From NCBI GenBank assembly GCA_025677815.1, contig JAIXMP010000006.1:1550001-1614000 (forward strand): a stretch of 64,000 nucleotides of DNA. Direction: 5' to 3'. A program made the position numbers and the translations under genes. Origin of the DNA: Phascolomyces articulosus (lineage: Eukaryota > Mucoromycota > Mucoromycetes > Mucorales > Lichtheimiaceae). Position 1 is the stretch's first letter. Each line of letters starts with the position of its first letter. Of this stretch, positions 23,094 to 48,473 are shown one piece after another. The notes beneath the pieces are model-generated. The model made no database searches. It was not told where the DNA came from and saw only the letters and a list, made by a program, of their open reading frames with translations.

Positions 23094-23100
23094 TATAAAA
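23054..23100 (+). promoter_or_regulatory. promoter of WWE-like gene 1
   Basis: TATAAAA at 23094-23100 lies 140 bp before the ATG. Forty bases above the TATA box starts GCGCCA (23054), followed after 8 bases by AGTCG (23068-23072). The same two words at the same 40-bp distance occur before gene 3. The leader then runs to the ATG without an upstream start codon in a good context. Confidence 0.6.
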
Positions 23101-23233
23101 GGAGGGAAAAAAAAGAGTGATTTACGATCATTACAATATTATTTCTATTATAAACAACAAACAACAAGCAAATCCAACAAAACACATAACCTCTACTTCT
23201 CTTAATTTATCTTTCATCTTATTCATCATCCAC

Positions 23234-23440
23234 ATGGCAATCTGGGTCTACCAAGCAGGAAATCAATGGGTACCTCTCGATCGTGAAAGTAGTGATCGCG
23301 TTGAAAATTACTGGCGACATTATCAATCTGGACCTATCTTTGTTCATCGTCGTTACCCCGCCTATGTTTACCCTGCAGCTTTAACGCTTCAATTTAATGG
23401 AACTGGTGTTCGTGCAGCCATTGCAAGAAAAGGAATGTAG
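23234..23440 (+). CDS. small stand-alone WWE-like domain protein 1
   Basis: An intronless 68-aa ORF that is essentially one domain. It starts MAIWVYQAGNQWVPLDRES and has the WWE-type pattern: Trp-x-Tyr, Gly-Asn-x-x-Trp, an Asp and Ser pair, a short helix (RVENYW), two beta segments (PIFVHRR, PAYVYPAALTLQF) and a final AIARK. In WWE domains such as that of RNF146 the matching positions form the half-barrel that binds ADP-ribose units, and the terminal Ile-x-Arg is conserved. A Gln (LTLQF) aligns with a ligand-contacting Gln of RNF146, and it is kept only in this copy. No signal peptide or membrane segment. The family call is from pattern recognition and has not been tested against a profile. 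Confidence 0.72.
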   Translation: MAIWVYQAGNQWVPLDRESSDRVENYWRHYQSGPIFVHRRYPAYVYPAALTLQFNGTGVRAAIARKGM

Positions 23441-25996
23441 AAAATGTTATTATCACAACAAAATAATGACACGGAAACTTTGTTCTCTTCTATTGTCATT
23501 ACAATAATACCATATCATCTTACTATGTTTTTTATCGATATAAAACGACATTTCCTCCTCCTGGGCAACCAATAGATAGACATATGACCACTACATGGAT
23601 TTACTTACACCTTCTCCTAGATACATTTTTATGCATTCCATCATTTTCAATTTTCAAAAATTATATATACCTTCATTTCAAATGATCATTATGACCATCA
23701 TTAGACTAGATCACCCATTTGTATACTATGTCTTTCTTTTTTTATCATTTTCATTTCTTCATTTCAAATCCAATTCAATTAAAGTCTACAACAATTGCAT
23801 CTTTTTTAACATAATGATTTATTTTACTAAGAATGATATGTTTATTATTGTTTATGTCTTGTTGTGGTATCGTCACTTCTACTATAGTACCAGATCAAAT
23901 ATTATATAAGTAATGCAATGACTATTAATTTAAATCTATACATAATATGTTTATTTGTAAATTATCAGAAAGTTATTAATGAAATACTGAAAGAGAGGAA
24001 GAAAAAAAGTAGAGTGCTTATAGCACACCCATCATGTGCTGTATAAACTATACGTGCCACCAATCCACTTTTTTGGTCTTTAATATCTATAGGTGGTAAG
24101 AAAGCAGTATACATTGAGGAAGGTATTTATCACAATAAGATAGTATCTGGAAGTACCTTTTTTTTTTGCATTTTAGTAATATCTCGATAAACCATAATTT
24201 AAATGACATTTTTAATAAAAACAAGATCAATTGATGCTATCAAAAAACTTTATTTTTTGTCATTCATCTAACAGAAGAAATGAAATTACACAAAGGCAAA
24301 CATCAAGTAAAGGTCTAATGCTGTTCCTATATTTGAAACAATCATGGTGTAAATAAGGTATGTGAAGAATCTGAAATGAATGTGACATGTTGCGCAGTAT
24401 GGTAATAGAGTGAAAGAGCAATAATAACCATTGGCAATGGTATTACTCGGTACAAATGTCATATTTGCCCCATAATGACATAAACTATGTAATCTGCGTA
24501 GCAAGAAAGAAAATTTTAGATTGTTGTTACCTGAACCAGCCACTTTTTCATATTGTAATAAAGGAAAAAGACTTCTCCTCTTTTGTACAACAATTACCCC
24601 AATTCTTGTACCTTACATAATAATAACAAGAAGAAACGGGGCCATTATTTTCTTTCTCACCCTGTTTTTAGATCTTTTGTTTAGATCCACCGTGAGAAAA
24701 ACAATATCTCTTCATGGTAATAATACTTGAACAACGGACCTCGCTATGAATCTGGTAATGTATTCTCTTATTATGACTTTTTTTTTATCCCAAAAAATTA
24801 TCTTGTTATAAACCATGATCGTTGTATTTAATAGAAGGAGTAATCTATAAATGTTCGCGAGCCTTGAAAACGAGAAAAAAAAATGGTATTATAGTCTGGG
24901 AATTATAAAACTGCTAATATTTGTTCATTAGCTTCCTGTATATATACTGAATAAACATCCTTCAATCCACCAAGGATGAGGATGTAATAGTACATGTTAT
25001 TGCTTTTATTAACGTTAAGTAAACAATGAATTTAAAAAATGAAATGATTTAGACATGTACTACGAAGAATGCACTGACCAACGCCGCCACATTTAATCTC
25101 TTCGGTATTCCATCCGATAAAAAAAGTAAAACAATTGGTTTATCAAATTGATTATATCATCAAAAGGACGTGATCATATCCATATAAGTGTATATGGCGC
25201 AAAACACATGATCAAAAAACAAAAAAAGTGGCGGTGTAAAATGGGTTGTGTGGCTCTAAGCAACATGTAATTTTATCAATGGTCATCTTCTCTTAAACAA
25301 AATAAAGTATCAGCTTTTTTTATAATATAAGCTTTTTATATATATAGCAAGTAAATATGCAAACTGGGGTGGTGGGGAGATGAACGAGATCAAATGAAAA
25401 CGATTCGGATACAACGACTATATTATACTACTCAGCAATTTTTATAGCAGGGATAATTATAGATAAAAAAAAAACAAGACGACCCATTGTGTGAAAGAAA
25501 AATGAGCATACAAATAATAATAATCTTTTGATAATAGAGAAAGAAACATGAAATGGATGTATAGAATTTAAACCATGATGCCATTGAGAACAATGATGCA
25601 ACTTGACTTGGATACGGTGTAGTTTTTTCTTTCTGTACGACACTGCACATTATGACGTGATGACCTGCCTAAACTTGGCAATTTTGTATAACATGCTTGC
25701 TGATCACACATACTTCTTTGAAAGAAAAGCCCAGACCCAAAAACCCAACTGCGTAGCATTTGATCTATTAAAAACAACAATAGGATTAGTAGCCACTGCT
25801 AATCATATTTCAATATATGATTGAGAGCGCAATTATCGTATTTGTTCTTTAATTTTCATAAGGAAATTTAGGATCATCCCCACGTTCTTCCTTCCCCTAC
25901 CTTTGGCTTTTGGGATATTTTACTCAACGTCGTTTCTCTTTTTTACGATGCATTATCCCCAAAGGATGTCATACTATGATTTCGAAAATAAAAGAA
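23441..25996. other. WWE unit 1 downstream tract and spacer
   Basis: The first 450 bases after the stop are poor in G and rich in T/C on the plus strand, giving an open hydrophobic reading at 23595-23909 that I regard as a by-product of composition, probably 3' UTR. The rest is AT-rich spacer without a supported gene. Immediately upstream of unit 2 the sequence contains AACGTCGTTT (about 25927) and GATGTCAT (about 25965), the latter also found near the TATA box of unit 5. Confidence 0.45.
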
Positions 25997-26003
25997 TATA
26001 AAA
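25997..26003 (+). promoter_or_regulatory. TATA box of WWE-like gene 2
   Basis: TATAAAA 135 bp before the ATG at 26132, matching the placement seen in all five units (115-143 bp). The CGCCA word of units 1, 3 and 5 is not present here. Confidence 0.55.
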
Positions 26004-26131
26004 AGAAAAAGAAAATGGATGCGAAAAAAAATAATTACATCAATCAATAAAGTAACTTCAAGTTTCTATATCAAAACTACATTTATTATACATCTCCAGT
26101 AACAGCAATACTTATTCAGCATAAACAAAAA

Positions 26132-26329
26132 ATGCCTTGGTTATATCAAGCCGGAAATATGTGGGTCCCCCTCGATGCCAATAGCAGTGCTCAAATTGAT
26201 GGTTATTTCTCACGAAATATCATTGGTGATATTTATGTCAATCGTTTCGATCGTGCTTGGGTGAATCCATCCGAGTTGTATATATGTTTCTATCGAAATG
26301 GTGTTTATGCCAAAATTGCTAGAAACTAA
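26132..26329 (+). CDS. small stand-alone WWE-like domain protein 2
   Basis: An intronless 65-aa ORF beginning MPWLYQAGNMWVPLDANSS. It aligns along its whole length with gene 1 (AGNxWVPLD) and with gene 4 (DANxS, the NR-AWV-P core), then ends VYAKIARN. Helix QIDGYFS, strand DIYVNRFDRAWV and the closing Ile-Ala-Arg follow the WWE-like pattern. It lies 2.7 kb downstream of gene 1 on the same strand. The start is the first ATG after the leader, preceded by AAACAAAAA. No partner gene is adjacent. Function is unknown; ADP-ribose binding is an inference from fold similarity. Confidence 0.72.
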   Translation: MPWLYQAGNMWVPLDANSSAQIDGYFSRNIIGDIYVNRFDRAWVNPSELYICFYRNGVYAKIARN

Positions 26330-28440
26330 TAATCGTATGCAACACACCATATAGAAGGAATAACAAGATATCTACCTCCTTCTCATCGAAGGTGACAATC
26401 TACGTAATGCCATATAATAATTATATACAACAACAAGACTTGATTTCAAGAAAAGAAAGTTCAATACCTTAGACAACAGTCATAACACTTATGCATCACC
26501 ATCATCATCATTTATCAATGTATTATTTATCCTTACCTATCCTTTTCATTTTATTTGTATATTATTGCACACATTCATTTTCACCATCATTATCACCAAT
26601 AACTATTTGTTATTTTTACTTTCTTTCTTCCTTCCTTTTTATATATTATTTTCATCATCAATCATCACCACCTTGGTAAAATGTAATTACAACAATAATA
26701 TGAGTCCTCTTTTTTTTTAAAAAAAAAATAAACAACATTATTATATGCATCTTTTATTATAAAATATTTGTATATTGAGAATTGATATGGTTACAAAAAA
26801 AAATAGTTGCAGTGAAAAGCGTTCCTTGTAAAGAACATCTGTTAGATCTATTATCTGAATCTTTTTGATCAAAGTCGCACGAAAAAAAAACCATCATTTC
26901 TACATATGAAAATGTCTTTTTTTTTTTACTACGCACTGAATGATAAAGTAAGAACCCCATAATCTGGTGACGATTATGGCGCGATTACTATGTAATTCTT
27001 CACACCCTGCAATCTATGTGGTGGGTTATCTGGTCATCCGATCCGTTCCCGATGCTTCCAATAGAAAATCGTCACAGCCACACACACACAAGCTGAGCCA
27101 TCATTCAAAAATGCATGGACCTTAAAAAAACACTAATTTTTAGCTTTGAAAGAGTATAACCCCATTGTCTGGATTATTTAGAAAGATGGATCAATCGACG
27201 ATTACTCAATTCATAAAAAATGAAAGGACAATGTTGACTTGTCTTCTGCGACACAAGACTCCTTTTTCTTTATCGACTATGATGATGTATAATAAACGAC
27301 CTTGCTTGGTCGGTCTGAAATATTTACAAATAAAAAAGAATATTCATATTAAACATATTTGTTAATTTAATTAAAATGACGTGTTTGTGTACTATAATAT
27401 TTCTTTTATTTTTTTGGCGAGAGATAGAGCCACAATTGTTCCATATAATTAATATGCTCAACGCCACACAAATAAACCTAAAATGAAATAATACTGTCGC
27501 AACTGCTTTCTGTAATTAAGGGTACTAATCACAACCACCTGATAATACACCAATATAATGTTCTTATTTATGTGTATTTTTTATAATAAGATAAAGTACT
27601 TACCCGCCACCAAAAAATGTCACAAATACTTTTTTTTTTGGACGCCATCCATCCATCATCCATTGTAACAAGTGCTGTGCCACAATGTAGTACCATTATC
27701 ATGTTTAAACTCAATATCAACAATGGCAGATCCACATGTGATGCGACAGACAAATGTTAATTATCTTGGCATAATTCATCATTTCCAATCCGTGGATCCA
27801 GCTCACAAACGGATCTATTACATCCGATATTAATGCTAAGCTAAAAAGAATTGGCATATATGCGAATTGATCCCGATGGTTCCTGATTCTATTTTTATTA
27901 AACATGATCATATCATCACTATGGGCCACTTTCTTTACTGTCATGATACCAATGAAAAACAAGCAAGATCACAGTAGAAAAAAATGGCGCCAATTTATCG
28001 CCACTGACTATGTCCCCCCCCTTTATGATATATACATGGACATTACTTGGAAAGAAACACAATAGATAGTGAAGATTTTTTTTCTGCTATGTTGGACGAC
28101 TAAAAAAAGTGATAAAAGAGGATGATTAATAATGTAAAATGGACTATTGTTACAATGCAAGTAAGAGAAAAAACAAAGTAAATAATGTAGGGCATCAGCA
28201 ATAAAAAATAAGATTCTGTATGCCGATGATCGATAAAAAAAAAGCAAGAATTTAGGTGGCACACATTTCCTAATACCTTATGGTAATAAAGGGAAATATG
28301 ATGCAATTATTAGCATATAATATCAAAAAAATCGGATGCGCAACCACAATATCTAAAAAAAACCAGCTCCCGTAGTAGAAGGTGCTTCTACTGGCAACGT
28401 TGTGAAGTAGCTTGGCAGTAAGCGCCATTAGTCGAGTGAG
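26330..28440. other. WWE unit 2 downstream tract and spacer
   Basis: A G-poor, pyrimidine-rich stretch (26480-26680) follows the gene, as in the other units. Then comes AT-rich spacer in which I see no gene. ATGGCGCCAATTTATCGCCAC near 27984 is a further GCGCCA site outside the proximal promoter. Confidence 0.45.
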
Positions 28441-28468
28441 AATTCCTTTAAGGAATTTGTATATAAAT
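28422..28468 (+). promoter_or_regulatory. promoter of WWE-like gene 3
   Basis: TATAAAT at 28462-28468 lies 117 bp before the ATG. GCGCCA starts at 28422, exactly 40 bases above the TATA box as in unit 1, followed by AGTCG at 28430-28434. Between them and the TATA box is a perfect palindrome, AATTCCTT-T-AAGGAATT (28441-28457). Confidence 0.6.
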
Positions 28469-28578
28469 ATGAGGGATTGATATAAAAAAAAACATATACA
28501 ACTCAACAACAATAATAACAACTTTTATTAACAACTTATCAACTTAATACAAACTTATCAACTTGTCAATAATTATCT

Positions 28579-28851
28579 ATGGCGACACAAAACCCCATCA
28601 CCAACACTAATATCAATGGCAACTTGGTTCAAAATCTACCATACCAATGGATTTATGCAGCTGGCAACACATGGCGACCTTTCTCTGTTTCAGCCAATAT
28701 GACAATCGAGCGCCTTTTTTACCAAGGAATTACTGGTTATGTCCAAGTAGATGGGATGCAAGCCTTTGTTGATCCCATAGAAGGATGTCATATCATATTG
28801 AACCGAGAAGTACTTGCCATTGCTCGATCTTTTCCACAACCTTATTATTAA
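28579..28851 (+). CDS. small WWE-like domain protein 3 with N-terminal extension
   Basis: An intronless 90-aa ORF. Residues 1-22 form an Asn/Thr-rich extension absent from the other copies. The domain starts at YQWIYAAGNTWRPFS, with helix TIERLFYQG, strand GYVQVDGMQAFVDP and a closing VLAIARS. It pairs with gene 5 rather than genes 1, 2 and 4: both have AGNxWRPF, a Phe-centred helix and the QVDG turn. The tail FPQPYY is unique. This split into two subtypes suggests an old duplication within the array. Function unknown. Confidence 0.7.
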   Translation: MATQNPITNTNINGNLVQNLPYQWIYAAGNTWRPFSVSANMTIERLFYQGITGYVQVDGMQAFVDPIEGCHIILNREVLAIARSFPQPYY

Positions 28852-30430
28852 ATTTTCAGTATTTAGTGCACCGATAATAATTGGCTACTTGATATTTACA
28901 CCGAGATGTAATCCAATTTTGACTTTTTAACTTTTTTTTGACACCACCTACTTACGACTTCATCCTCCACAGGAAATATAACACTGACGACACTCTTTAT
29001 TTCTCTTAAACCATCCAGCATATACAGTAAATTCATCGTTTTTCATCATTGTTTATCATTGTTTCCAGTCATTTCACCTGCTTCTTTAACATTTTTTTCT
29101 ATCCAAGATTATATAACTCCTCCAACAAATGTATCTAGTCTCTTTTCTATCTGTATGCCCCACCCATTCTTTTTTTTTTTTTTGAATATGTTTATTTTTT
29201 TTCACATATTTTATCATTTTATTCTTTTTGTACAGCATCTTCAATCTTCCCCAATTGTAAATCCACCTACTATGTCTATATTTTTTCTTTCAAATTACGT
29301 AGAAAAATGAGTAAACTACAACAATTCCACTACTACCAAGGCTTCTTGTTTTCGTTGTATTCAAATAGTCACACTGCCATTTTACAAATATAAAATAAAC
29401 CAATTTATCATTTTTCAGTTTTTTTACTCATCATTTTGTATTATACTTTTTTTTAAGTTATAAAATATGTATCAACATCATATGGGAGCATGTCATTATG
29501 TGTAAATGACATAACATATTATTATCGTTGCTTCTGAGATGATGGAAGTGATAAAGATAAAGAGAAGGAAAAAGTATTCCATTTTTTTTTCTTTGCATAT
29601 ATATAGTAGTTGTGGCATCATCAGTATACCAACGAATTGTGGCACATCAACAATATACGTACATATGTGTTTTATTTTGTACATTTACCCGTTTCATCCG
29701 TAATAAAAATAGGTGGCACGTTATTATTTATCAAAATTCCTGAAGGATGTGATAAATGTTATGTAAGAGTATGTCATTATGGATGCATTATTATTACTTG
29801 TGTAATCCAAAAAAAAAAATACACACAAGCTAAAAGTGAGGGAATAATAAACCAAGAAATAATAAAACCACCAAGGCAATTACGTTTCTCAGCAATTAAA
29901 AAAAACAATATAATACATACAAAAAATAAAAGTAGTAATAGTACGCTGTTGTAAAGCTGATATGCTACTTTTAATATATATATATATACCATAGTCTATA
30001 CGTATATGTAGAATCAATGGAAACAGCAGTCGTACTGTTTGACACTTGCGCTTGATCATCTATCAAAATAATAAAGGTAATAAAACGATAAAACTGCTTG
30101 TTCTTGTTTAGCAATATTTATATTATGACGCGATGAAATCTGGACGAATAAGCTTTCGATGTAACTTTTGGTGGATTCGCTCGACGGCTTCTGTTAGTAG
30201 ACAGAGAATATGTATGATAAAAAAAACAAATAAACAAATAAAACAAACCTTAATGCGTATAGATTGATATTAATCCATACCGGATAGAGAATTAACGTTT
30301 ATTAATACCAGATAAAGAAATAAAAAGTGGCACAGTAACCCCATTACTTTCCGTCTCCCTAGAAGCATGGCTGTGTTTTTTTTTTTTTTTTTTTGTAGAA
30401 ACGCGTCTTGGCTTAAATCAAATAATTGTA
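28852..30430. other. WWE unit 3 downstream tract and spacer
   Basis: Pyrimidine-rich, G-poor DNA from about 28980 to 29310 with long T runs, then AT-rich spacer. No gene supported. ACGCGT occurs at 30401-30406, about 25 bases before the TATA box of unit 4. Confidence 0.45.
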
Positions 30431-30437
30431 TATAAAA
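30431..30437 (+). promoter_or_regulatory. TATA box of WWE-like gene 4
   Basis: TATAAAA 143 bp before the ATG at 30574. An ACGCGT palindrome at 30401-30406 precedes it; this is the MluI cell-cycle box core in ascomycete yeasts, but its meaning here is unproven. Confidence 0.55.
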
Positions 30438-30573
30438 GTACATCATGATGAATCATGGTATTTTATCATCCATTTTTTAATAGTACGTGCCAACAACAAT
30501 AGCAACACAGCTTTATTTACATGTATTAGTTTATCACTATAAACTAACTACAACAAGAAACCAAATAACAACA

Positions 30574-30774
30574 ATGTCGTGGGTATATCAGTCAGGAAGC
30601 GAATGGGTGACAATCGATGCCAACAATAGCGCAATAATAGACCGCCTTTTTTCTGAATCTCGGTGTGGTGAAGTTTATATTAATCGTGAACATGCTTGGG
30701 TCGATCCTATCAACTTGCAAATATATTTTCCTATCAATGGTGCTCGTGCCAAAATTGGAAGGACTGGATGGTAG
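30574..30774 (+). CDS. small stand-alone WWE-like domain protein 4
   Basis: An intronless 66-aa ORF starting MSWVYQSGSEWVTIDANNS. Helix IIDRLFSES, strand GEVYINREHAWVDPINLQIYF and the ending ARAKIGRTGW fit the same pattern. Among the five it gives the clearest full-length match to the WWE layout (W-x-Y, W, Asp/Ser, helix, strand pair, Lys-Ile-x-Arg). The start is supported by the ACAACAATG context and by alignment with genes 1 and 2. It is the last intact unit before the broken HET-domain gene. Confidence 0.73.
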   Translation: MSWVYQSGSEWVTIDANNSAIIDRLFSESRCGEVYINREHAWVDPINLQIYFPINGARAKIGRTGW

Positions 30775-33513
30775 TTGATTAATATAATTATATAATTATT
30801 CTCTTCCAGCAATAAAGAGAAGAGCAAGTAGAATGTTCGATGTAGAATCTTATCCAAATAGCTATCATTATTTTCAACGACAAAACAACAATCCAACAGT
30901 TTTATATTTTCCAACTTTATTATATATCTGATGATGACAATGATGATAATAGAATATCCCATTCCTTTCATTGCAACCTAATTACGCTTATGACTTTTAT
31001 TCATCTAATATATTCTATCCTATCGATGATATTATGCTATTTATCTAATCTCTCATTCATATTATGTATGTCTCATTACCTCCTCTTCTCATTTGTTTTT
31101 CTCTCCCACATAACAATTAAAAAGTCACTCCTCCTTCTTGATTTAATTTTGCAGAAACAACCTTTTAAGCGATTTTTCTTTTAATGATAAAAATAATCTA
31201 CTCTAGCAATAACAGTAATTATAATAAACGTTTTATATTTCCATGCTTGAGTTTATCTATTTCTGTGCAGTAGTGATCCCTGTAGTAACGTGGAAAAGAA
31301 ATGATACTTTCTCATACCAATATAAAGCATATTTTTATCACACTGCAACTGCGCCAGCGTTGTAGTACCAAAGGCGAACTATTAGTTTTTTTTGTTTCAG
31401 TGGAATATGGTTAGTCTTATTATCAGTTGATGGTAATCCATTATTATTTAACTAAGCCTACAACTTCATTTTTGTTACTTTAGCACCGACTAACTTCATA
31501 GTATATCTTGTATTATAAATATTTGGTCTCTTTCCAACGTGTTGCAAATGTCCCTATAATAAAAACCCATATAAATATATAACATGTTCTTCTATGACTT
31601 TTTTTCAATCGTTGATTTGATTTTTCATATAAAGCTGGCTATAAGGAATATATGCACCCAGGCACACAATGTATATCAGTACGTACATGGATCTCTCTAA
31701 AAACTCATCAGTCCAGATGAAAAATATACCAGTTGTTTACCAATTATCGTTGTTTGGTGAAGTTCACGTTTCATCATCATCATCGTCCATAAAAAAAGTT
31801 CATCCTCATCTAAATAAACTGGTCATCTCGTCATTGCGCATTATCTTCTAACATCACCACATCTTCTAACGTTTTTAACAATGTATAATTATTTAAAGAG
31901 GAAACGCGTTACCAGGTAAAAATTAGTATCTACCCCAAAACCTAAGCTTATGGATATGCTTTATATACGAAGAAAAGAAGTAAAATATATATATGCGTAG
32001 CAACACATAACTTATTCTAGACTCTAGCCAGTATGGAAACCTTTTTGAACTTGTGACGTAATATGGATTTTCTGAAGAAAAACGCATCGATAAACAATGA
32101 TACTGCATCATTTACATTTTAACAATAGCAATTCTACTGATGGATGTAATGGTCAGTGTATAATTAATAACATTTAATATCTTCTAAATGAATAGTATGT
32201 GTGATAGTGATATTCTCCCTTTTTTACTCGAAGAAGACATTGCAGCAAAGTTGATTTACATATGAACAACCAGAAAAAATATATTTGTTGTCATGTAGTA
32301 ATAAAACTTACATATTTTTCTGTTGTCACTGTGGGTGACACATTTTCTTTAAGTATCAATGTAATGCTTATTTTATTCAAATTACGTCATAAAACAAAAT
32401 CCCTTTCATTTTGCTTTTTAATAGCAGAATGAACATATCCATTGTTTGTATCTAAGTCTAACATAAAATAACAAAGATTCACTTACAATAAAGGTTATAT
32501 TCTATTATATATGCTCTTTATTGAACTGGTTTCGTTTTTGGGTTTAAACAATGGACAGGATTATAATGGTCCATTTTCAGTGTTTTAACCACACTGCATT
32601 TAAAAAGTATAAAAAGTCTCGAGTAGGATACCCACTAATAACAATATCTTTTGTCTGTTGCATAACTACTGCTGCACCAAATGTTTTCCACTTTATTGAT
32701 CTTTCTCTTTTTCCCTTTTTCAAGTTGAAAAAAATAATACAAATACCTAGCACAATCTGTTGTCTTTATGAATAATCACAAACGCTCATCAGATGAAATA
32801 CGATATCAATTATAAAGAGGTATCGAATAGCTATGTTTTCTTTTGGCTGTTTTAGAGTTTGGGCTTAGAATATTGTTTTGTGTAATCGTGTTTCTGTATC
32901 GCACAAAAACGTGGAGCTGAGCTTTTCCTTTCTTTTATTCTAACAACCTTTTACGCTCTTATAATGTTTCTTCCTAGTCATTCAGCAGCAGTGAATCAAA
33001 CATTCAACGGCATGATTAGAAGGATTCATATTATTCCAATTGATTTCTTTTATGAATCGTCTGCATATAATAAACAAATATAACTCGATAATATTTACAG
33101 TATTTATAGGATGCACTGACGGTGATCTTTAAAGTTTTGGCTTAGCTACTTGAAATATGTCACACACGTTTTATAGAGAAAAAGGTATATTTAAAAGCTT
33201 TACTTGATTTTTTTTTCTTTCTAGCTACTTTACTAAAAACACAGCAGTTTTATTTTTCATTTTCTATTTACTACTTCCATCACTACCCTTCATTTAACAG
33301 AAAATTCTTGGGGGAACGCGTGTCTACTACCACTAAAATTCATCATTACTGTATACTCTCTTGCAATTTTTCCAATAGTACCATTCATTTCTTCATTATC
33401 TCTGAGTCAACAACTTTTTAATTTCTATTATCTACGATTATATTGAACCTAACTTATCAAACTTATTTAATGTAGTCATAGAAATAATGTATATTACCTA
33501 CGAGACCGCATAA
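30775..33513. other. WWE unit 4 downstream tract and long spacer
   Basis: A G-poor pyrimidine-rich tract occupies about 30960-31190. The remaining 2.3 kb holds no supported gene, but includes the second copy of the dispersed repeat (32985-33150) and TGCGCCAGCG at about 31350. I found no additional intact or clearly decayed WWE-like unit, although a short remnant could have been missed. Confidence 0.45.
32985..33150. repeat. dispersed repeat, copy 2
   Basis: Second copy of the segment at 9650-9840, same orientation, about 23 kb apart. Conserved words include TCATATTATTCCAAT, CATATAATAAACAAATAT and ATAGGATGCA. Copy 1 has an insertion of an A-rich stretch (about 9713-9750) relative to this copy. 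Confidence 0.8.
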
Positions 33514-35176
33514 TACTCTGGACGTAACGGCAAAGAGAGAAAACACGCCAAACGTGTAAAGCCACCCATTACACTCCCCAATGATTTGCCCAAACCAGAC
33601 TTTATGCCTACGAAACTTGTTCGTATTTCTGACATGAAAGTAGTCGATGGACCTCAAGTGAACGAAGGTTACTGCGCATTATCATATTCATGGAATCAAT
33701 CTGGAGATATTTTACTTGATGAAGCCACTGGAAAATACAAACGAATTGATGAAGGCAAACACAAGATTATTTCTTATCACTATATATTTCCTGATATGGT
33801 TATTCCTGAATACAAGATACCTTATTATGACGATAAATATCGTCCTACTAGAATAAAGACTAAACTTTCAAAAATATATTATGTTTTGGAGATCATGGAG
33901 AATAATAATTATTACTTTACAAAAACAACCAAACACGTCAAATTAGAAGGCATTATTCAACGAATATGTCAGCAATTCAACATCAAATATATATGGTACG
34001 ACCAATTATGTATCAATCAAGATGATAAAGAAGAAAAGAAACGAAGAGATACGCAGCATGCATCATATATACGAAAATGCTTATTGCACCGTTGCACTCA
34101 TACCTGATTTCTCTCGTAAACTCTATTTATATAAAACCAAATAACAATATTTCAAACGTTTATGGACTTTAGAAGAATTAATAAAGTCAAGAAGATTATT
34201 ATTTGTCGGCAGAAATGAGCATGAATGGGGAGAAGTTATCAATTCTGATCACTATATGCATTCACTTCGCAAACCATTATCGCAACTACGTGTCAATGAA
34301 ATTCTCCACCATGCACATCAACGAACAAGCACCAAAGATCACGACCGTGTATTTGCTCTCATTCAACTTTTTCCAGAATTCATTGACCAAATCAACATTG
34401 ACTATGATCAACCATTCGAAGAATTGATGATTCGATTTTATGTCATTTTAGCAGAAAAAGATATTAGAATTTTGCTTTTCGAGAACGACGCTGAATATTA
34501 TGAACCAACAATTCAACAGTACAGATTTTTGCCATCATAGACTGGCGTTAATGGACTACATTTGGATGATGATTTAACAGCATCATTTCAAAATTACGAT
34601 ATAATTTGAAAAACCATGCATGTTACGACTACTTATGTTACAAACAACCAACCCATTGATAATGATAATTTAACTATACGAAAAGAAGATCTACCACCGA
34701 GTCCTGATGATACCAATGACGGTGATAATGAAGACAAATACTATTTGTGCATATTTGTTCAACAACCTGGAACAAGTGATATGAAAAGAATCCGTTTAAT
34801 AGAATTTAGTTGCAATGATCTTTTTGTAAAGGAAGAGGGCTTTGCTGAAATCTCTAAAGAGCTTAAACAGTTATCAAGATTTATGGAGATAAAAAAAGAA
34901 AACCTGTGCTGGTATCACAATGAAAGTGATGATTATGGTATGGATCCATATTTTATTTTTGATTACTTAACGGACAATTTGTATGACCCTTCTGCACAAT
35001 ATTTCATTCTCTCTGAGATCTTATTTGAAGGATATTCTTCGTTCCTTTATTATCCCGTAATCAATAAAAGGCAAGGAGAAGAATTCCACAAAGCTATTGG
35101 ATGCTGTTTCATAGACAGTAATAAATATTTTTTCTCTGACTGTAATTTACCCAACCAAATATTTTTGATTCAATAA
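33514..35176 (+). pseudogene. broken HET-domain protein gene
   Basis: The N-terminal part reads from an ATG at 33604 (frame open from 33514) and contains GYCALSYSWNQSGD, then KYIWYDQLCINQDDKEEKKR, both hallmarks of the HET (heterokaryon incompatibility) domain. Near 34000-34058 the frame shifts and continues in another frame: YENAYCTVALIPDF, LWTLEELIKSRRLLFVGR, RVFALIQLFPEFIDQ, and a C-terminal half ending PNQIFLIQ at 35173. In-frame stops occur at 34142-34144, 34538-34540 and 34607-34609. The second falls where Trp is expected (PS-stop-TGVNG). HET proteins trigger cell death on non-self recognition in ascomycetes; the C-terminal layout matches a type I recall from Mucoromycota. As it stands the gene cannot make a full-length product. 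Confidence 0.82.
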
Positions 35177-37058
35177 AAATTAACAATTTATATAAATAAT
35201 TTTGATACGTAAAGTTAATAAATAATTGTTCATCAATATCAGGCGGGATGATCCTTGATGAAAAACCTAAATAATTCAACAACTACACATTAGGAATAGT
35301 CGAATTTTGAGCTAGCATGGAAATGCCTGGTATTAGTTTATTCTTTGAATCATAGATGGACCGATTCAACAAACAACATTAACGCCAACTTTACAGCATA
35401 TTTGGTTAGCACAATGTCAAATAAATTTTCGCAAACCATTCCAAGAATTGCCTAAAGGCTTGCTCATCACCGTCATCATGCAAGTCGTATTACAATTAAA
35501 CAAGAAAGAAGGTAATTAAAAATCTAATGGTTGCAAATAACATCGTTGTGTTTCTCAATCATATAACCGAAGATATTTCAACAGTAGTACGCTAAAGCCT
35601 TAAGCTTTAAAAGTGCTACTAAGCGCACACTACTGAGAACAGTATTAAAAATGAATTATTATTAGAACTATAAAGATATTTCCACCTATTTTTCAAATTC
35701 TGAGCCTTCCAATAATAACTCACCAATAAGAATAATATGATTACCACTAGTATCCAAGTAACATGATGCTACCATTATGACAATAATCTTCATTTGCAAG
35801 CAGGCGTGAAATAATAAGAAACAAAGCTTTGAATAATAAAAAAAAGTTACTTAAGGCGTGTCGTTGGAAATGAATCTAATAAGGATCTCAAATCTATGTA
35901 GTAGTAGCAAAAAAGCATAGTAATCCTCCATGGATGCTACTCACCAGATAGCAAGCTGATAAACCTGCGTAGCTACATATTACTGAAATGTTGGAAAAAA
36001 GTAATTATTGTTGCTGTAGAATTCCAAATTGAAATTCGGTACAGGACGAATATTTGTGATGGTGCTTGTCATTTGATGGTTTTGAGCCATTGTCACGTGC
36101 TGACAAGTCGTTATTTTTTTCTTCCATAACATTTCAAGTAATATCATTGCAACTGATAAAAAAAAGGGATAACATGCTATTATATCACTTTTTTTTATTA
36201 TTATATAATAAAATGCTTCATATTTTGGAGAAATATAATATCTGCAATTAAGAATTAGTAGAACACTGTCTAGGTTATTTTTTCCATAATAATGTAATAA
36301 TTGTACAATGATTATGTAGTGCTACTATCCATTATTTTACATGGTACGGACTCCTCCTCCATCACAAGAAATAGTAAATATCTATTATATTAATTGAACA
36401 GATAAACATGATGGCTCTAGGTACATTTAGTCGCTTCTTGTTGAAAAGAAAGAGCAACTACACTTATACTTCTTTTATATATCACAAATTTCTTCCCTTC
36501 TACTAGTAAACCTGTGACTAACTATACCAACAAAATGACTGGCACAAATTTGTTTCCTGGGCAACACAAAAATTTTTATATATGACAATAGAAATATTCG
36601 CTCATATTCCAGTTTGCTTTGCCCAAAATACCATGTACCACTTTCCTTATGTTTTATAGGAACTACACCGATAGATGATGTAATGATCAATCAAGCTTTT
36701 GTTTTTCGTACAACACGATTACAACACGTGAAGGGGGGGGAAAAATCAGTGCTCACACCAACAAAAAAAAAAGGCACAAATGGCCACACTGTGGCAGGAC
36801 CTACACTGGCTTATAGTAATACTAAAGCAATCCCTCACTGTGCGCCAACGTTGCGCCATCATCGTTGACGTGCCAAGATATGATATTCCAATGGTTATAA
36901 CAAGATCATATAATAGAAACGATGAATTTAACGTTTGAATATGCTGAGTGCCTTGCAAAATAAAAAAAAGAACAAAGCAATGCGGCACTCACCAAGTTTT
37001 GGGTTTTTTTTTCAGTAAATCAAATAATATACGCCAGGTCGATGTCATCCAAAAATCA
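35177..37058. other. spacer between HET pseudogene and WWE unit 5
   Basis: No gene supported. Contains a small hairpin (AAAGC-CTTAA-GCTTT, 35594-35608, inside a longer imperfect stem) and a cluster TGCGCCAACGTTGCGCCATC near 36841-36860, about 200 bp above the TATA box of unit 5. Confidence 0.45.
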
Positions 37059-37065
37059 TATAAAA
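37032..37065 (+). promoter_or_regulatory. promoter of WWE-like gene 5
   Basis: TATAAAA at 37059-37065 lies 115 bp before the ATG. CGCCAGGTCG at 37032-37041 is a compact version of the CGCCA/AGTCG pair in units 1 and 3. GATGTCAT follows at 37041-37048. Confidence 0.55.
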
Positions 37066-37173
37066 GGACGAATAAAATAACAAGTATCAAATAAAATCAT
37101 CAAGGCAACCTGATACGACCATTTAGAAGACAAAGTATAATCATATTTACTTAGAACGATAATAATTACAACA

Positions 37174-37365
37174 ATGTTTCAGTGGTATTTTCAGGCTGGT
37201 AATTGGTGGCGACCTTTCGATCCATATAATAACGTACGTGTTGAACAAATATTTCGAGCAGGTGCACGAGATATTATCCAAGTGGACGGATTTAATGCTA
37301 TTGTAAACGGATTAAATTTGACAATTGAATTGAATGGAGCGATGTTGGCGATTGTTCGTCAATAA
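37174..37365 (+). CDS. small stand-alone WWE-like domain protein 5
   Basis: An intronless 63-aa ORF, the shortest of the five. It starts MFQWYFQAGNWWRPFDPYN, then has helix RVEQIFRAG, strand IIQVDGFNAIV and the ending MLAIVRQ. It shares AGNxWRPF and QVDG with gene 3, so these two form one subtype. It lies beyond the HET pseudogene, 6.6 kb from gene 4, on the same strand and with the same promoter spacing. Function unknown. Confidence 0.7.
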   Translation: MFQWYFQAGNWWRPFDPYNNVRVEQIFRAGARDIIQVDGFNAIVNGLNLTIELNGAMLAIVRQ

Positions 37366-38041: not shown

Positions 38042-40222
38042 TTAGTCCATAACAATCAATCGTCCGTTCCGTTCACAAAGTAATCTTTCGGTATAATCTA
38101 CATTTCCAACCGAATCGCAACCTATAATATGCAATTCCTTCATTTCCTTGGCTCGTTCTACTAGATCCAAAATATCTTTACTTGTCACATGACTACAATG
38201 TACAAGCTTTACACATTTTAATCGTTCCAATACCGACAGACCTATAATCCAATGTTTCACCATACTCGCCATAGAAGAAACCTGATGCTCTTGGAGCTTA
38301 TGGTTCATCATCCATGCATTTATCTTTTCATCATCAGCATGATTCCTTGGTGCCTGGATTGTCGATATAGTACAATCCGAGTTCATGACAGCGGAGGACA
38401 CTTGTTCATGATCTTGTAAATTAAGCCGTACGAAATGGACTTGTTCTAATAAACACATCGTATTCTGAAAAAGTAAACCTAAATTCAACGCGTCAAATTC
38501 TGGATAATTATCAATAAATAAAACACGCAGCGATTGAACTTTACTCAAATCATCCAGCCAATAACGATCAGCCACCCATTGTGAGTTTCGAATCGTAAGG
38601 TGGGTTACCGTAGGGCACTTGTGCTTGGACAAGATCGATGCAATGGTATGCATATCCGAATCTTGAAGTACAAGATGGCGCAAGGAAGCAATATCCGTTA
38701 CTGCTGGAATCAGTAATTCAGATGGTCGATAGTTGTATTTCCCAGAGATTCCTGACAATTCTACCATTGTCAAATTGGGTCGATCGCTCAAAAACTTGCG
38801 TACAGATCCAAGTGTAAATGGGAAAAACCTGTATCCAACGCGGGCAATATCAGTATCCACTGAAATAGAAAGCATTGTCCATGATGAATTCTTCATTCGT
38901 GGAGGTGGACATCCAACATAATACTCCAATGTTGCATATTTTCGTTTGACAATCATTTCATCCTCTTTCTTTTTTTTATCTTGTGTTCCATAGGAGGATA
39001 TCTTTAATCCCTGTACCATAATATCCTTTTGCTTTTGTTGCCTATTATACTTGTTCCTGAATATATCCCCTCTCTGTACTGACCCTTCTTCCACATATTG
39101 TTTTGATAGTATATAAAGATCCTGCAAAGATGCCGGTGATCCATGTGTAATATGAGCATGTTCCGTTACCGTCCAATAAGGTAAGCATGAAAATGTAAAT
39201 GATTCGAGTTTTTTGCATGATTGTTGAACAGTGTCATAAATGGCGTCAAATATAATTTCAGGTGGCGGTCTGTCAATTGCGTCCCTGACAATCCAATCCA
39301 CTTGACTATTCAATGTCAATGATTTTAACTGTGGACACTGTCGAAGGACTTGTCCGAGGTAGTCCGGTCCTGTGGATTCATCCACAACGATTTGCATCAT
39401 AACTAGATGTTGAAAAGACGGCATATCAATAGGAACTGGTTGTTTTGAAACCATACTGCTGACATATGGTGTGCAATCAGTACATTCTAGGCTGATGAGG
39501 TTCGGACATGCATGAAGGATTATACCGACGAGGCGCGGATCAATATATGAATTGCCAATTTCCATCCGACGTAATCTCTCTCCAGTAAATTGCATATATT
39601 GTAAAAATTCCATACAAGATAATGGGCAATCATGAAATTCTAACACGAGTTATATATATAAATTTATTTAGTTCCATCCAATCAGTGTATTTGAGCTTTT
39701 TATCATCTAATAATGAATCAAAATGTGTGTTTCGCGTCGGTAATAAAGATGGTATAAATTTACCATCCACTATGTATACATAAATATATGATTTTTACCT
39801 AGATGATCAAGAGAACTACAGTTGATTTTGATAAGTTGTTTAAGCATATCAGCCATTTCAATTTCCTTGATATTCTGATACGAACCGTGGATCACGGAAT
39901 GATCCAAGGACAAGGACCGAATATAGCGTGCTTTTTTGTTTTCTTCTGGTATCTCACTACTGAAAATAGGACACTTGAAAAAAGCTTGGATATTATGGAA
40001 TAAGACTGTTTTCCATTGAATATGAGGGTTCTCAATAAAAAATGTACGCCAACGTCGACACACAGACACGCATACAACGAGTTCGTGACTATTAAGTAAA
40101 GAAAATATGGCAGCAATAATATCATAAGGCATAAAGAGAAGAAAGTCTTGTCGATCCTTCACCAGGGTGCCATGTTGAATCTTGAATAGTAAATCTTTAG
40201 TTTTCTGATAAAAAGTAGTCAT
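38042..40222 (-). CDS. F-box and leucine-rich-repeat protein
   Basis: Two exons on the minus strand (40222-39799, 39639-38042) encode 673 aa. The F-box is at about residues 28-76 (FMPYDIIAAIFSLLNSHEL then VCRRWRTFF). It is followed by irregular leucine-rich repeats such as LISLECTDC, LKSLTLNSQ, LRHLVLQDS, VTHLTIRNS, LRVLFIDN and LKCVKLVHCSHVT. Such proteins link a substrate to Skp1-cullin ubiquitin ligases; the substrate cannot be read from sequence. A charged stretch (KRKYATLEY preceded by KKKKEDEMI) separates two repeat groups. The gene diverges from UBR1 with 665 bp between start codons, so the two ubiquitin-pathway genes may share a promoter region. Confidence 0.85.
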
Positions 40223-40887
40223 GGTGACAATTATGCATCAGTTGTTAAAAGGGCGAGAAAAAAAAATTGAATAAAGCGAAAAAAGAAGAAAAAAAAAGAA
40301 AAAGAAAAAGAGGTTAAATAAAGTTAAAATATAACTTTGCATATGATCCTATGACCTTTCTTTATCTCTCGAACTTGCAGATAATATATGCTTAGTCGTT
40401 AGTAAAATAATAATCAGAGTACCAACTTGATATATATAAAAGTGATATAGAGAAAGAACTATATATATACTTTTTCACGCTGTTTTATTCATTGCAAACA
40501 AACAAAAAAAAAAGAATAATAGTTGAAATGCAATTCAGTCATCGTTTCGTTGTTGATAATGGCAATACGTAGTAACGTTTCAAAAGTTGAAGGAACACGA
40601 AAAGGCCTTGGGGGAAGAAGGGGAGCATTTACGTTTGTGCTTTGCGGGAAATGAATCCTTTTACTTTACACGCGCAGTTATCCTGACGAGTTTTTCGACT
40701 TTTTGGCTTGAACATTCCTTGACAACCCTTTCTTATTCATCCAACAACAGGTCTTTTTTTTATACTTTTACTTATTTATTTCTTTAAAAAAAAAAGAGAG
40801 AGGAGAGCCTTTTTTTTTCTCGTTGTGTTGTTCTTTTTTTCCCTTCTTCTTATCCTATTGGGATTGTGTACTATTTTCGATAAATAA
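40223..40887. promoter_or_regulatory. divergent promoter region, F-box gene and UBR1
   Basis: This 665 bp lies between the start codons of two divergent genes. It contains A-rich tracts on the F-box side, TATATATAAAAG near 40430 and a pyrimidine-rich block at 40740-40855 just before the UBR1 start. No specific binding site is recognised. Confidence 0.5.
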
Positions 40888-43800
40888 ATGACAGCTCCTA
40901 ACTTCAAGGTACACGGCCAATCCTCCGATGACAATGGGAGTGGTTCCAACTTTACTCCAACAACTTATCCTTCGGGCTCAACTTGTTCTTATTCCTCTTC
41001 TTATACAACACTCGCCGAATATTTATGGAAAACACCATTCATTTTCAACGGTCGATTCAATGACGATACCCGAAAAGCCATCCTTACTGAATGTTACCAA
41101 TCCTTGTGGCAACACGATCCCACTTTAATGCAACACTATTTTTTTAACAATCAAAAAGAATTCCTAGATGCTATTCATGTTCAGTTACAAAATAGAAATG
41201 GCAAAGAATACCCTAAAACGACCATGGTGGACCCTTCTATTGTTTGGCACTCGAATGGAATAGTGCCACCTCCTGACCTTTCAAATGAATATGGACGGCA
41301 ATGTGGTTATGTTTTTCGAAAAGGGGAACCTATCTATCGATGCAGGAAAGAACAAAAATATCAATCAAATCATCTATCATGGATATGTAGATATATAAAA
41401 TAAGGAGCACGGGTTGGGGAATGAACAACAGAATTCAATGATTGAAATTTTGAAGAAAAAAAAAGCTTATACGTTTATTGCAATTTTTTTTCATATCAAC
41501 AGGACGTGTGGATTAGATGATTCCTCTGTATTTTGTTCTCGCTGTTTTCATGCAACAAACCATGATGGACACGATGTTTTATTTGCAGTGAGTCAAGGTT
41601 CTGGAGGTTGTTGCGATTGTGGTGATGCTGAAGCTTGGAAAATCCCATTACAATGCAACATTCATTTCTCTTCTTCCTCCGACAATAGCAACAACGAACT
41701 TCATGAAAGTGGCACTCTATCAGAACAAGTACCCAAAAAAGTAGCCGACGCAATTCGTACCAGCCTATCAGCTGTCTTGGACTTTATACTCGATACATTT
41801 GCATTAGGGCCCGAGGAAATGTCATTAACAGCATCCTCCAACGAATTGACAAATGAGGATGAAGGTAGCAATAAAATTTCAGTAAAATCACCAGACGATC
41901 CATTACTTGATCAAGACGATGATGTGGACATGGATCATGTGGGTTCATCCGATCCTTTATTCTCGAGTCCATCTCAACGATCTTCTGATACTACAAGTGG
42001 TGATCATTCAACAGTTGCAGAAGAGTATGTGTGTATTGCTTGGAATGATGAAGGTCACGCTTTTTCCCATGTTCTTGAATGTCTTCAAGCTGCCAAAGGA
42101 TGCAAATGGGAAGAAGCCAAGGAATTAGTTGAAGCCATCCATTTACACGTTAGTGATTACTTTATATATATGTGTTTCTTTTCAAAGCATGTGGGAATTC
42201 CCAATTTTTTCTTCATTGGGAGAAAACAAAACTAATGCATAAATTTTTAGGGTCGCAAAGTCATTGCAACGTCAACCAGCATTGAGCAACTTCGAAAAAT
42301 TGCAGCTCCACTTGCAGCAATTAATCTTGGAGTTTCTATTCGAACTGCGCGTGATGTTTATCGAGAAGATGTATGCAGCTTACTGATATTTTGGCTCAAA
42401 GAATTAGTCCATGGTCGCAGTCGTTTTTTTAAGGAGATCCCCAATGGAGATGCTATAGTGCGTACGATTTTATGTGAAGAATTATGTACGGATTGGAGAT
42501 TACGTGGATCATCCAATCAGGAACTAGGTTATACACGTACTGTAGATATCAGAGACGTAGATGATGAGGATATGAACGAAGATTTAATGGGTATAGCTTC
42601 AAGTACCATGATAACACCTGATATGCCCGAGGAAGAAGATATTGAAATGCTGGATCCAGATACTCTTTATATACAACAACCAAAAGAATCAAATCCAGGA
42701 AGAAGAGAAGAGGAAGGAGAAAAAATAACAAAAACAGATGTGGCAAGTATTGATTGGCATCCAGCAGATATGATGAATGAATTCCAATCATTACGCACCA
42801 AAGAACTTCTATTATGGGACGAATTAATGGCAAATGCCAATGGAAAAGGAAAAAGTGTGGGTGCATCCTCCACCGGGAAAAAAGTCACTCCAGAAATGAT
42901 GCCATCCGTCATTCAACGGGAATTTGAACGAAGATTTCGCCTGGATTATTTATTACTCGCAGATCTCAAACTTTGGAAAGAAATGCGTGTGGCACTACGA
43001 GAACTTTATATTACCTCATTGATAGCGGATACTGGGTTCCGAAAAGTATTAGGTTTGTTTTGTTTATTCTATAGGGTAAAATCGTGAGGGAATGGATGAT
43101 TATCCCAAAATACTTATTGTAACATTGTATATATGACAGGAAAACGATTGGCCAGAAATTATGCACGATTAGCCGAATCCTTCTTACTCAAAGATCGAGA
43201 GCCCGAAAGCTCCATCATTTTATTCTCTGTACAGCTATTAACTGTTCCCTCCGTGGCCGATTTACTTGTCAATCAATATGACTTTTTTGGACTCATTTGT
43301 TCATCTCTTACCGCCTTTTTCTTGACTGATCGCTTATACCTTGTTTTACCTTCTGAACGTGAACGATATCCTGCAAGAGTGAACTGTGAATCACGCGCTT
43401 TCCGTACTCGACGTTATTTTAATGCTTTCCACGATCTTCGTTATATCATGAACGTTGAAATGATCCAACCTGTCTTGGCTCAAGACCCGCTCTATTTGTC
43501 TCAGTTTCTTGATTTGATTAGCATGTTTCAATGCATGAATGCTCAAATATGTCAAAAGGATGCACATGTTGAATACGAATCTGAAATTTGGGTCAATGCA
43601 TTCAACGTCACATTACAAATTGGAAAATGTTGTCGACAATTTGCTGCCTGTTTTGGAAAATTATCTTATACAGCTTCATCCTCCTCTTCCGATCGGATAG
43701 CAGCAACTCGAACATTGGTGCGTGCCATTACACGTATTCTCAAAGCAATCGATACATGGGGAACTGAACCAGATGATATGCGATCTGTGGAAGATAAAGC

Positions 43801-46800: not shown

Positions 46801-48473
46801 TTGATCAAATACCACCACAAACACGCATGCTGCTTCGTATTCTTTGTGATAGTATTTTGGCTTACACATGCATCATGTGTCACCAAGAACCTGGTGCAAG
46901 TCTTTCTTCACCTTCCACCAATCTAGGCCAAACATTAATACGTGTCCATCTATTGGCATTGGCACGTTTACGACAAGTGTTTGCGGATATCCAAGTAGGC
47001 GATTTTGCTCATCTTCAAGGACTTTGTTATGAACGTATGGTAGTGTATGATAACCTGCCATTGTTACAAGATGATCCATTCATGGTCTTGACCGAACTGA
47101 CATTCCATGGAATCCCTTTTGCTAAAATGAGTGTACATATATTGATGCGTGTTCTATTGCTTGCGGAGCTGACCAAAACAGTGGTATCGGTGGTACAAGA
47201 AACACTCCAATTACTTTTATCCAATAATACAACTTTACCACCACGAGGCAAGAAGAATAGGATGGAAGAGAATGCAATGAAGGATGGAGAAGGGATACTT
47301 TCGGATGAACAGATAGGATCCATCAAATCTTTTACCATGTTTATTATGGAACATCTCAAATTCACCCCTCAAGAAGCCATGGCTGTGTATGAAAAGATCG
47401 GAGCTATGAAATTATATGCATTGCTTCAATCATTCGGTTTACCCTTTTTACGCCGCACCATGATTCTCATGATTGTTCGTTATGGCTATATACCAAGCCC
47501 AAAGCAACAACGGCCCGATGCGAATGAATTTGAACGTATATTGGATTTGTTATGGCTTCCGGAACTACCCGAACTCATTGAATTGAAGCCTGAGAATGAA
47601 CAATTGATATCGACTTGGTGTAGTCATCATATCACTGAATCAGAACGTAATTTACGTATGCAACAACATCATGCCCACTATGAAGATCAAGTGGAAGTAT
47701 TCTCGAACAATAATACCAGCTTATTGCGATTTGAGAATATTGTACTGGATTTACCTACACCATTGCAATTAATTCCTCTACCCATGAAATTGGAACAATT
47801 GATAGATGAAAGTTTAAGACGCGTCTGTACCAAATGTAATTCAGTACCTACTGATCCTGCCATCTGTTTACTCTGTGGAACATTTGTGTGTGCCCAAAGT
47901 TTTTGCTGCGCAGAAGATGAGGAAGGGGAATGTAATTTACATCGACTAGAGTAAGTGATCGTGTAACAAACACCCTTTTTATTATCATTACCGAATATAT
48001 AAGTGAAAAAAAGATGCATGGAGATTGAATGGGGTAGTTAAGACGAATTTTGAATCGGGTTTTTCTTTTTTTGTAACAAAATTTCTAAACTGGGTCATAT
48101 TTATTTATCTTTACAATAGATGTGGAGGTGAGATTGGTCTTTACTTGTCTGTCAAACGGTGTGTTGTTATATTGCTTTATAACGGAAACGGCTGGTTCGT
48201 GAATGCACCGTATCTCGATCCACATGGCGAAGTGGGTCAAGGTTTTAGGTATTTAAGAAAAAAAATTGCTCCGCATAGCAATAAATAGAATCAATATACT
48301 TTTGGTTGACTCACATTTTCTCTCTTTTTTTATACAGGAGAGGAAAACCACAATATTTGAATCGAAAACGATATAATGAAATACGAAAATTATGGTTACA
48401 ACATAATATTCCTGTTTATATTGCAAGACAAATTGAAGCTAGTTATGATATTGGTGGTTGGATTTCCGTTTAA
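40888..48473 (+). CDS. UBR1: E3 ubiquitin ligase UBR1 (N-recognin)
   Basis: Seven exons (40888-41345, 41503-42148, 42251-43052, 43140-44215, 44295-47950, 48120-48248, 48338-48473) give 2300 aa; yeast Ubr1 has 1950. The UBR box (about 138-205) reads CGYVFRKGEPIYRC then CGLDDSSVFCSRCF, HDGHDV and GGCCDCGDAEAWK. It binds basic N-terminal residues (type 1 N-degrons). The middle holds the helical N-recognin core. A RING-H2 finger (about 1448-1575) has CIVCQEE, CSHLMHIKCF and CPLCKS, separated by a long insert. The C-terminal autoinhibitory UBR region has Cys-rich CTKCNSVP and ends PVYIARQIEASYDIGGWISV. With Rad6-type E2 it polyubiquitinates N-degron substrates. Intron 1 has a GA instead of GT donor: the UBR box requires joining 41345 to 41503, yet the intron starts GAAAGA. 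The other introns are GT-AG. Confidence 0.93.

What the first reader, a model, noticed from the sequence alone, without database searches (positions are those of the whole stretch)
23094..37365. Array of five free-standing WWE-like mini-proteins
Five intronless ORFs of 63-90 codons on the same strand (23234, 26132, 28579, 30574, 37174) share W-x-[YF]-x-[AS]-G-[NS]-x-W-x-[PT], a short helix, a two-strand core and a closing I-x-R. This matches the layout of WWE domains, which in animals and plants bind ADP-ribose or poly-ADP-ribose within larger ubiquitin-ligase or PARP proteins. As single-domain proteins in a same-strand fungal array they would be an unusual gene family, possibly ADP-ribose readers, sinks or decoys, or self/non-self or stress factors. 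The similarity is seen by eye; the function is inference.
Basis: partly seen in the sequence, partly recalled or inferred. Interest (0 to 1): 0.85.

Follow-up and report, generated by a model that had tools for sequence, protein, structure and literature searches.

The report
Array of free-standing WWE-fold fungal proteins
A mucoralean fungus carries a row of tiny, real genes, each encoding one WWE-type binding domain and nothing else; they belong to a little-noticed fungal family whose binding pocket looks altered from the known ADP-ribose readers.

The parts
23234..23440 (+). W1: single-domain WWE ORF, 68 aa; keeps the Gln at the place of RNF146 Gln153
   Evidence: ORF; Pfam WWE 13.3 bits, below cut-off 21.1; AF2 pLDDT 93.3; WWE rows first in Foldseek and VIA-align; pocket table
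26132..26329 (+). W2: single-domain WWE ORF, 65 aa; copy at G000:C67:1330998
   Evidence: ORF; no Pfam hit of its own; W4 finds it at E 1e-14; coding 193/198 identical to its copy against 1106/1244 in the aligned flanks
28579..28851 (+). W3: single-domain WWE ORF, 90 aa with about 20 extra N-terminal residues
   Evidence: ORF; Pfam WWE 17.8 bits, below cut-off; W5 finds it at E 3e-9
30574..30774 (+). W4: single-domain WWE ORF, 66 aa; copy at G000:C67:1334353
37174..37365 (+). W5: single-domain WWE ORF, 63 aa
   Evidence: ORF; Pfam WWE 21.0 bits against cut-off 21.1
25355..26822 (+). Segmental duplication around W2, also present about 245 kb away on the same contig (with shorter matches at 26945-27081, 27678-27857 and 30553-30767)
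   Evidence: blastn 86.6% over 1526 columns to G000:C67:1330191-1331689

Best explanation
The five ORFs are genuine genes for free-standing WWE-fold proteins of 63-90 residues (shown by homology, predicted structure and selection on copies). They belong to a Mucorales family with two branches: a conserved core form and an array form, known from Lichtheimiaceae, that multiplies by tandem and segmental duplication; this window holds the largest cluster of it found here. Mechanism (inferred): each protein is a small soluble binding module without a fused catalytic domain that holds a ligand or peptide in the open half-barrel. The aromatic floor of the pocket (Tyr107 and Tyr144 places) is kept, but the residues that read adenine and the phosphate (Gln153 and Arg163 places) are mostly replaced, and in the array branch the Gln153 place is one of the most variable strand positions. 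So the members most likely recognise something other than, or less specific than, the iso-ADP-ribose unit, perhaps with different paralogues holding different ligands, and act by occupying or bridging that ligand rather than by steering a fused ubiquitin ligase or PARP domain.
For: Fold. Family: at least 14 ORFs in the genome; 31 proteins from outside or unnamed sources (28 of the 29, since P0001 is this genome's own C25; 3 new). Relatives above the Pfam WWE cut-off of 21.1: P0030 28.7 and P0031 23.3 bits. Two clades 95/95. Selection: W4 pair 13 amino-acid changes against 25.9 expected neutrally, 0 of 5000 simulations as low; C28 pair 23 against 37.5, 0 of 5000; W2 coding more alike than its flanks, p 3e-5. 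Orthologue of C28a in Circinella umbellata, 62/68 identical. Pocket table and column variability. Pocket roles: PMC11269756, passages read.
Against: No expression, binding or knock-out data. The W2 pair alone does not exclude neutrality at the amino-acid level (2 changes; 458 of 5000 simulations as low). Pocket places rest on a sequence alignment; a shift of one residue would give C2b, P0003 and P0032 a Gln as well as their Arg, that is, a near-canonical pocket. Gln is kept in W1, C28a, C28b and P0031. The Gln153 place is not the most variable strand position of the array clade: W1 positions 41 (3.18 bits) and 11 (3.04), each the first residue of a strand, exceed its 2.99. A varied pocket can also mean no ligand at all. 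None of the five window ORFs passes the Pfam cut-off, no Foldseek E-value is below 0.001, and the 38-row profile aligns to RNF146 (E 0.006-0.017) only over its first half.
Confidence: 0.57

Rival explanations
1. Canonical readers, sinks or decoys of ADP-ribose or poly-ADP-ribose: the small proteins bind PAR or mono-ADP-ribose marks made by the fungus's own PARP and shield them or compete with other readers.
For: WWE fold with ADP-ribose-, ADP- or ATP-bound structures among the nearest matches; the Tyr107 place is Tyr in 40 of 42 rows and the Tyr144 place aromatic in 41 of 42; the genome encodes a PARP catalytic domain (C15, pieces of 89.9 and 67.7 bits).
Against: Gln153 place is Gln in 4 of 42 rows and Arg163 place is Arg in 3 of 41, both in none; core rows have Tyr at the Arg place in 25 of 25. 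No PARG match over the cut-off in the genome (one at 19.1 bits against 26.3).
Confidence: 0.21
2. Protein-protein adaptors on a WWE scaffold whose small-molecule pocket has degenerated; the invariant W4, W12, I63 and R65 only hold the fold, and the partner binds elsewhere.
For: Loss of the Gln/Arg pair; the core branch has its own invariant set (among them D16, Q20, W34, F40, D46, Y61, T62, A64) that could be a partner surface; [quoted passage not shown]
Against: Pocket floor aromatics are kept, which a dead pocket would not require.
Confidence: 0.18
3. Exons of larger genes, not complete small genes.
For: Fungal genes often have short introns (recalled), and the five were not returned from the protein collection.
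Against: In each of the 14 ORFs the ATG lies within 23 residues before the first Trp and the stop within about 15 residues after the closing Arg; 29 of the 32 proteins found are 66-98 aa long; CAACA-like stretches stand before several of the ATGs (by eye).
Confidence: 0.03
4. Chance ORFs or decayed copies without function.
For: Short ORFs, not returned from the protein collection.
Against: Motif absent from 40 simulated windows; purifying selection in two pairs; 4340 and 4813 of 5000 neutral simulations of the W4 and C28 pairs gained a stop; cross-genus conservation.
Confidence: 0.01

Closest known systems
WWE domain of RNF146 (PDB 3v3l, iso-ADP-ribose bound)
   Different: RNF146 is a RING ligase; here the domain stands alone. 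Gln153 and Arg163 are not kept together in any row.
WWE domains of HUWE1 and TRIP12 (6pfl, 8rd7, 9bks, 9bkr)
   Different: Parts of large ligases; these have Trp at the 107 place where the minis have mostly Tyr, and the conserved Gln and Arg that are mostly missing here.
Mucorales small proteins named 'WWE domain-containing' in UniRef (P0001, P0012, P0017, P0026)
   Same: Single domain, same family; P0001 is the C25 member of this genome.
   Different: P0001 (as C25), P0012 and P0017 fall in the core clade, with Tyr at the Arg163 place and an invariant Trp/Phe pair; the window's array belongs to the other clade. P0026 (98 aa) was not placed in the tree.
Array-clade relatives in Lichtheimiaceae: P0031 Circinella umbellata, P0030 Lichtheimia hyalospora
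   Same: Same clade; P0031 is an orthologue of C28a; P0030 holds two units end to end.
   Different: P0030's first unit lacks its last strand, so it may be two neighbouring ORFs joined by a gene model (inference).

Membership tests
WWE domain (PF02825) | Pfam gathering score 21.1 bits | tested here: not met
   Window ORFs 13.3, no hit, 17.8, no hit, 21.0 bits. Other members of the same family meet it: P0031 23.3, P0030 28.7, and the C28a, C2a and C2b frames 22.4, 22.1, 21.9. At E up to 1, 27 of 38 aligned members match WWE. The window ORFs are filed as WWE by homology to these and by fold, not by this cut-off.
WWE domain (PF02825) | WWE half-barrel fold | tested here: met
WWE domain (PF02825) | Two conserved Trp and one Glu (the name-giving residues; which Glu is meant is recalled) | tested here: met
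   W4 and W12 in all 39 rows counted; the E24 place is E in 11 and D in 3 of 14 array rows, E in 25 of 25 core rows.
ADP-ribose/PAR-reading WWE | Gln for adenine and Tyr + Arg for the proximal phosphate (PMC11269756) | tested here: not met
   Gln 4 of 42, Arg 3 of 41, both 0; aromatic at the Tyr144 place 41 of 42. Depends on the alignment.
ADP-ribose/PAR-reading WWE | Measured binding of iso-ADP-ribose, ADP-ribose or PAR | not testable with these tools
   Needs purified protein.
PARP- or E3-fused WWE proteins | WWE within a larger protein with PARP, RING, HECT or Deltex domains | tested here: not met
   ORFs of 63-90 codons end soon after the domain; no other Pfam domain over its cut-off.

The most novel reading that the evidence does not exclude
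The Lichtheimiaceae arrays are a diversifying repertoire of free-standing WWE receptors or decoys, each paralogue tuned at the adenine-reading position to a different nucleotide-like or ADP-ribosyl-like ligand, possibly for conflict with viruses, bacteria or rival hyphae.
Probability: 0.11. Interest if true: 0.8.

Novelty: new variant of a known kind. Interest (0 to 1): 0.52.

Why it matters
WWE domains are known as ADP-ribose readers built into ligases and PARPs. An order of fungi keeping them as lone proteins of about 7-10 kDa, with the ligand-reading residues exchanged, gives a natural series for asking what else the fold can bind and what a reader does without an effector domain. It also shows how small ORFs escape annotation: none of the five was returned by three searches of a collection of 5.8 billion proteins.

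Tried and rejected
Profile of the five alone found no protein at E up to 0.01 among 51 candidates; the 13-member profile found 29. Weak Pfam alternative XPB_C (4 of 38 members at E up to 1, best 0.0011; below its cut-off of 27, though scoring above WWE for P0003, 19.3 against 17.3) was set aside because the fold comparisons put WWE entries first. In one search the 38-row profile gave RNF146 first (E 0.006-0.017), then nine PDCD6 sequences (E 0.1-0.19), Deltex (0.32) and a lysophospholipase (0.77); the PDCD6 match is local and was set aside. The HET gene inside the array was considered as a partner; among ORFs of 110 aa or more at the C67b, C28 and C2 groups I recognised no HET-like frame by eye (not scanned with Pfam), so the link is unsupported. 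Other WWE hits not counted as lone members: C24 (21.3 bits with its neighbours, over the cut-off; a piece of 65 codons that reads like an ordinary WWE domain), C78 (20.6) and C89 (20.0) in frames of 390 and 641 codons, and C37 (17.8, sequence not read); also C60 (15.3 bits). C23:397843 (41-codon frame, E 0.036) was not counted either. Site-wise positive selection was not tested: most paralogues are saturated at synonymous sites. The clustering of changes between W4 and its copy in residues 49-60 (6 of 13, p 0.0099) was chosen after looking and is only a hint.

On re-checking I withdrew an earlier wording that the Gln153 place is the most variable strand position of the array clade; two strand-start positions are higher. 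I lowered the best explanation from 0.60 to 0.57 and the novel case from 0.13 to 0.11 for that, and raised the two ligand rivals slightly.

Rows dropped: of the 29 hits, P0001 (identical to C25), P0009, P0011 and P0026 (longer versions) and P0029 (shortened, like P0002) were left out of alignment A3 (38 rows). The tree has these 38 plus P0031, P0032 and the two halves of P0030. The array column statistics leave out C67b2, P0031 and the first half of P0030; 14 of 17 array rows used.

Print: the listings showed no title or abstract start about single-domain WWE proteins in Mucorales (one search listed 20 of 35 papers, 20 of 76; one search found no paper naming Phascolomyces articulosus). Of the listed papers I read only passages of PMC11269756, PMC4245714 and PMC7613979. 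Most subscription journals are not in that library.
Full report
What is there. I call the ORFs W1 to W5 in order. W4 finds W2, W1 and W3 in the genome at E 1e-14, 4e-7 and 0.004, and W5 only at 0.3; W5 finds W3 at 3e-9 and W1 at 0.009.

The organism and the family. The window is C67:1550001-1614000 of a 47.4 Mb assembly. One family member in this genome (C25) is identical to P0001, which NCBI names from Phascolomyces articulosus, Mucorales, Lichtheimiaceae. Searches of the genome with nine family proteins converge on 14 single-domain ORFs: W1 to W5; copies of W2 and W4 at C67:1330998 and 1334353; pairs on C28 (359147, 367791) and C2 (333404, 336826); singles on C25, C40 and C55. The tool scores only its best candidates, so 14 is a lower bound. 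The genome also has WWE-like pieces in other frames: C24 over the cut-off (21.3 bits), C78 and C89 below it, C60 below it; these look like parts of other, larger genes and are not counted.

Relatives elsewhere. The 13-member profile finds 29 proteins at E 2e-22 to 5e-8, one of them this genome's own C25; those with a species name (14 of 29) come from Phascolomyces, Fennellomyces, Rhizopus, Sporodiniella, Mucor, Parasitella, Mycotypha, Cunninghamella, Chlamydoabsidia, Halteromyces and Circinella. That these are Mucorales was looked up for five genera and is recalled for the rest. At least four carry the automatic UniRef name 'WWE domain-containing'. A profile of the array kind finds four: P0003 again, P0030 of Lichtheimia hyalospora (119 aa, two units end to end), P0031 of Circinella umbellata and P0032. 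P0031 is 62/68 identical to the C28a ORF. None of the five window ORFs was returned, so they appear to be unannotated (inference).

Two clades. A tree of 42 rows splits with support 95/95 into a core clade of 25 rows (with C25 and C40 of this genome) and an array clade of 17 rows with all five window ORFs. The three named species of the array clade are Lichtheimiaceae. The tree rests on 67 columns, 12 of 39 inner branches are well supported, its root is the midpoint and several array branches are long, so details inside the array clade, and the place of C55, are unsure.

Origin and selection. The W2 region (25355-26822) matches C67:1330191-1331689 at 86.6%; shorter matches follow, and W4 again matches; W3 found no counterpart there. 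So the array has changed by segmental duplication and gain or loss. In the W2 pair the coding stretch is 193/198 identical against 1106/1244 in the aligned flanks (Fisher p 3e-5); its two amino-acid changes alone would not exclude drift (458 of 5000 neutral simulations as low). The W4 pair has dN/dS 0.19 to 0.21 and 13 amino-acid changes where a simple neutral simulation gives 25.9 on average, 0 of 5000 as low; the C28 pair 23 against 37.5, 0 of 5000. These are genes under constraint.

The pocket. In human WWE domains a Gln makes a double hydrogen bond to adenine, a Trp (Tyr107 in RNF146) stacks on it, and a Tyr and an Arg hold the proximal phosphate (PMC11269756, passages read). The passages name HUWE1 Trp1619, Tyr1658, Gln1667 and Arg1676 and RNF146 Tyr107; that RNF146 Tyr144, Gln153 and Arg163 are the counterparts is recalled and fitted to the alignment (the Tyr-to-Gln spacing of nine is the same in HUWE1, RNF146 and W1). 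In 42 rows the Tyr107 place is Tyr in 40, the Tyr144 place aromatic in 41, the Gln place Gln in 4 (W1, C28a, C28b, P0031), and the Arg place Arg in 3 of 41 (C2b, P0003, P0032); no row has both. All 25 core rows have Tyr at the Arg place and Met, Thr, Leu, His or Ile at the Gln place. In the array clade the Gln place has 2.99 bits of variability; among strand positions (model) only 41 (3.18) and 11 (3.04), both the first residue of a strand, are higher. Results against this reading: C2b, P0003 and P0032 carry a Gln one column later, so a one-residue shift would make them near-canonical; and the pocket floor is intact.

How it may work. Shown: real genes, WWE fold (predicted), family, duplication, constraint. 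Inferred: a module of about 7 to 10 kDa without a fused partner domain, and by eye without a hydrophobic leader (no signal-peptide program was run), can act only by holding, hiding or bridging something. With the aromatic floor kept and the two reading residues mostly exchanged, a changed ligand is more likely to me than unchanged ADP-ribose reading or no ligand, but all three remain open. The genome has a PARP catalytic domain and no PARG match over the cut-off; a survey likewise found no obvious PARG in Mucor circinelloides and Rhizopus delemar (PMC4245714, passage read).

Surroundings. Between W4 and W5 lies a HET-domain gene; beyond W5 an F-box gene and a UBR1-like ubiquitin ligase gene. 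The C67b pair sits among repeated Hsp70-like genes; the C28 and C2 pairs among genes that look like housekeeping genes by eye. I saw no neighbour shared by the groups, so context gives no partner.

Verdict. A true and little-noticed family; new variant of a known kind (stand-alone, lineage-expanded, pocket-altered WWE).

Noticed in passing
window 33604-35176 (+): HET-domain (heterokaryon incompatibility, PF06985, 35.5 bits on the first frame) gene in three exon-like frames inside the array, between W4 and W5; HET genes are known mainly from Dikarya (recalled).
   Followed up: partly
window 38042-40237 (-) and 40888-47954 (+): F-box/LRR-like gene and a UBR1-type N-recognin E3 ligase gene next to the array.
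   Followed up: partly
L032 and L033 (G000:C67:1322001-1342000): Five repeated, roughly 66-74% alike stretches in both orientations surround the W2/W4 copies; two of their ORFs hit Pfam HSP70 at 20.6 (the cut-off) and 16.0 bits.
   Followed up: partly
L034:7323-9102 and L035:655-5234: Blocks without long ORFs around the two C28 WWE ORFs are repeated at 71-77% identity, including stretches upstream of an ORF start that recur without a WWE ORF.
   Followed up: partly
G000:C24:489834-489974 (L039), C78:1237379 (L040), C89:1576407 (L041), C60:187661 (L038): WWE-like pieces in other frames, C24 over the Pfam cut-off, the others below; probably exons of larger, more ordinary WWE proteins.
   Followed up: partly
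window 7626-8054 (+): Piece of a MULE-like transposase (24.8 bits, below the cut-off 27.6).
   Followed up: no
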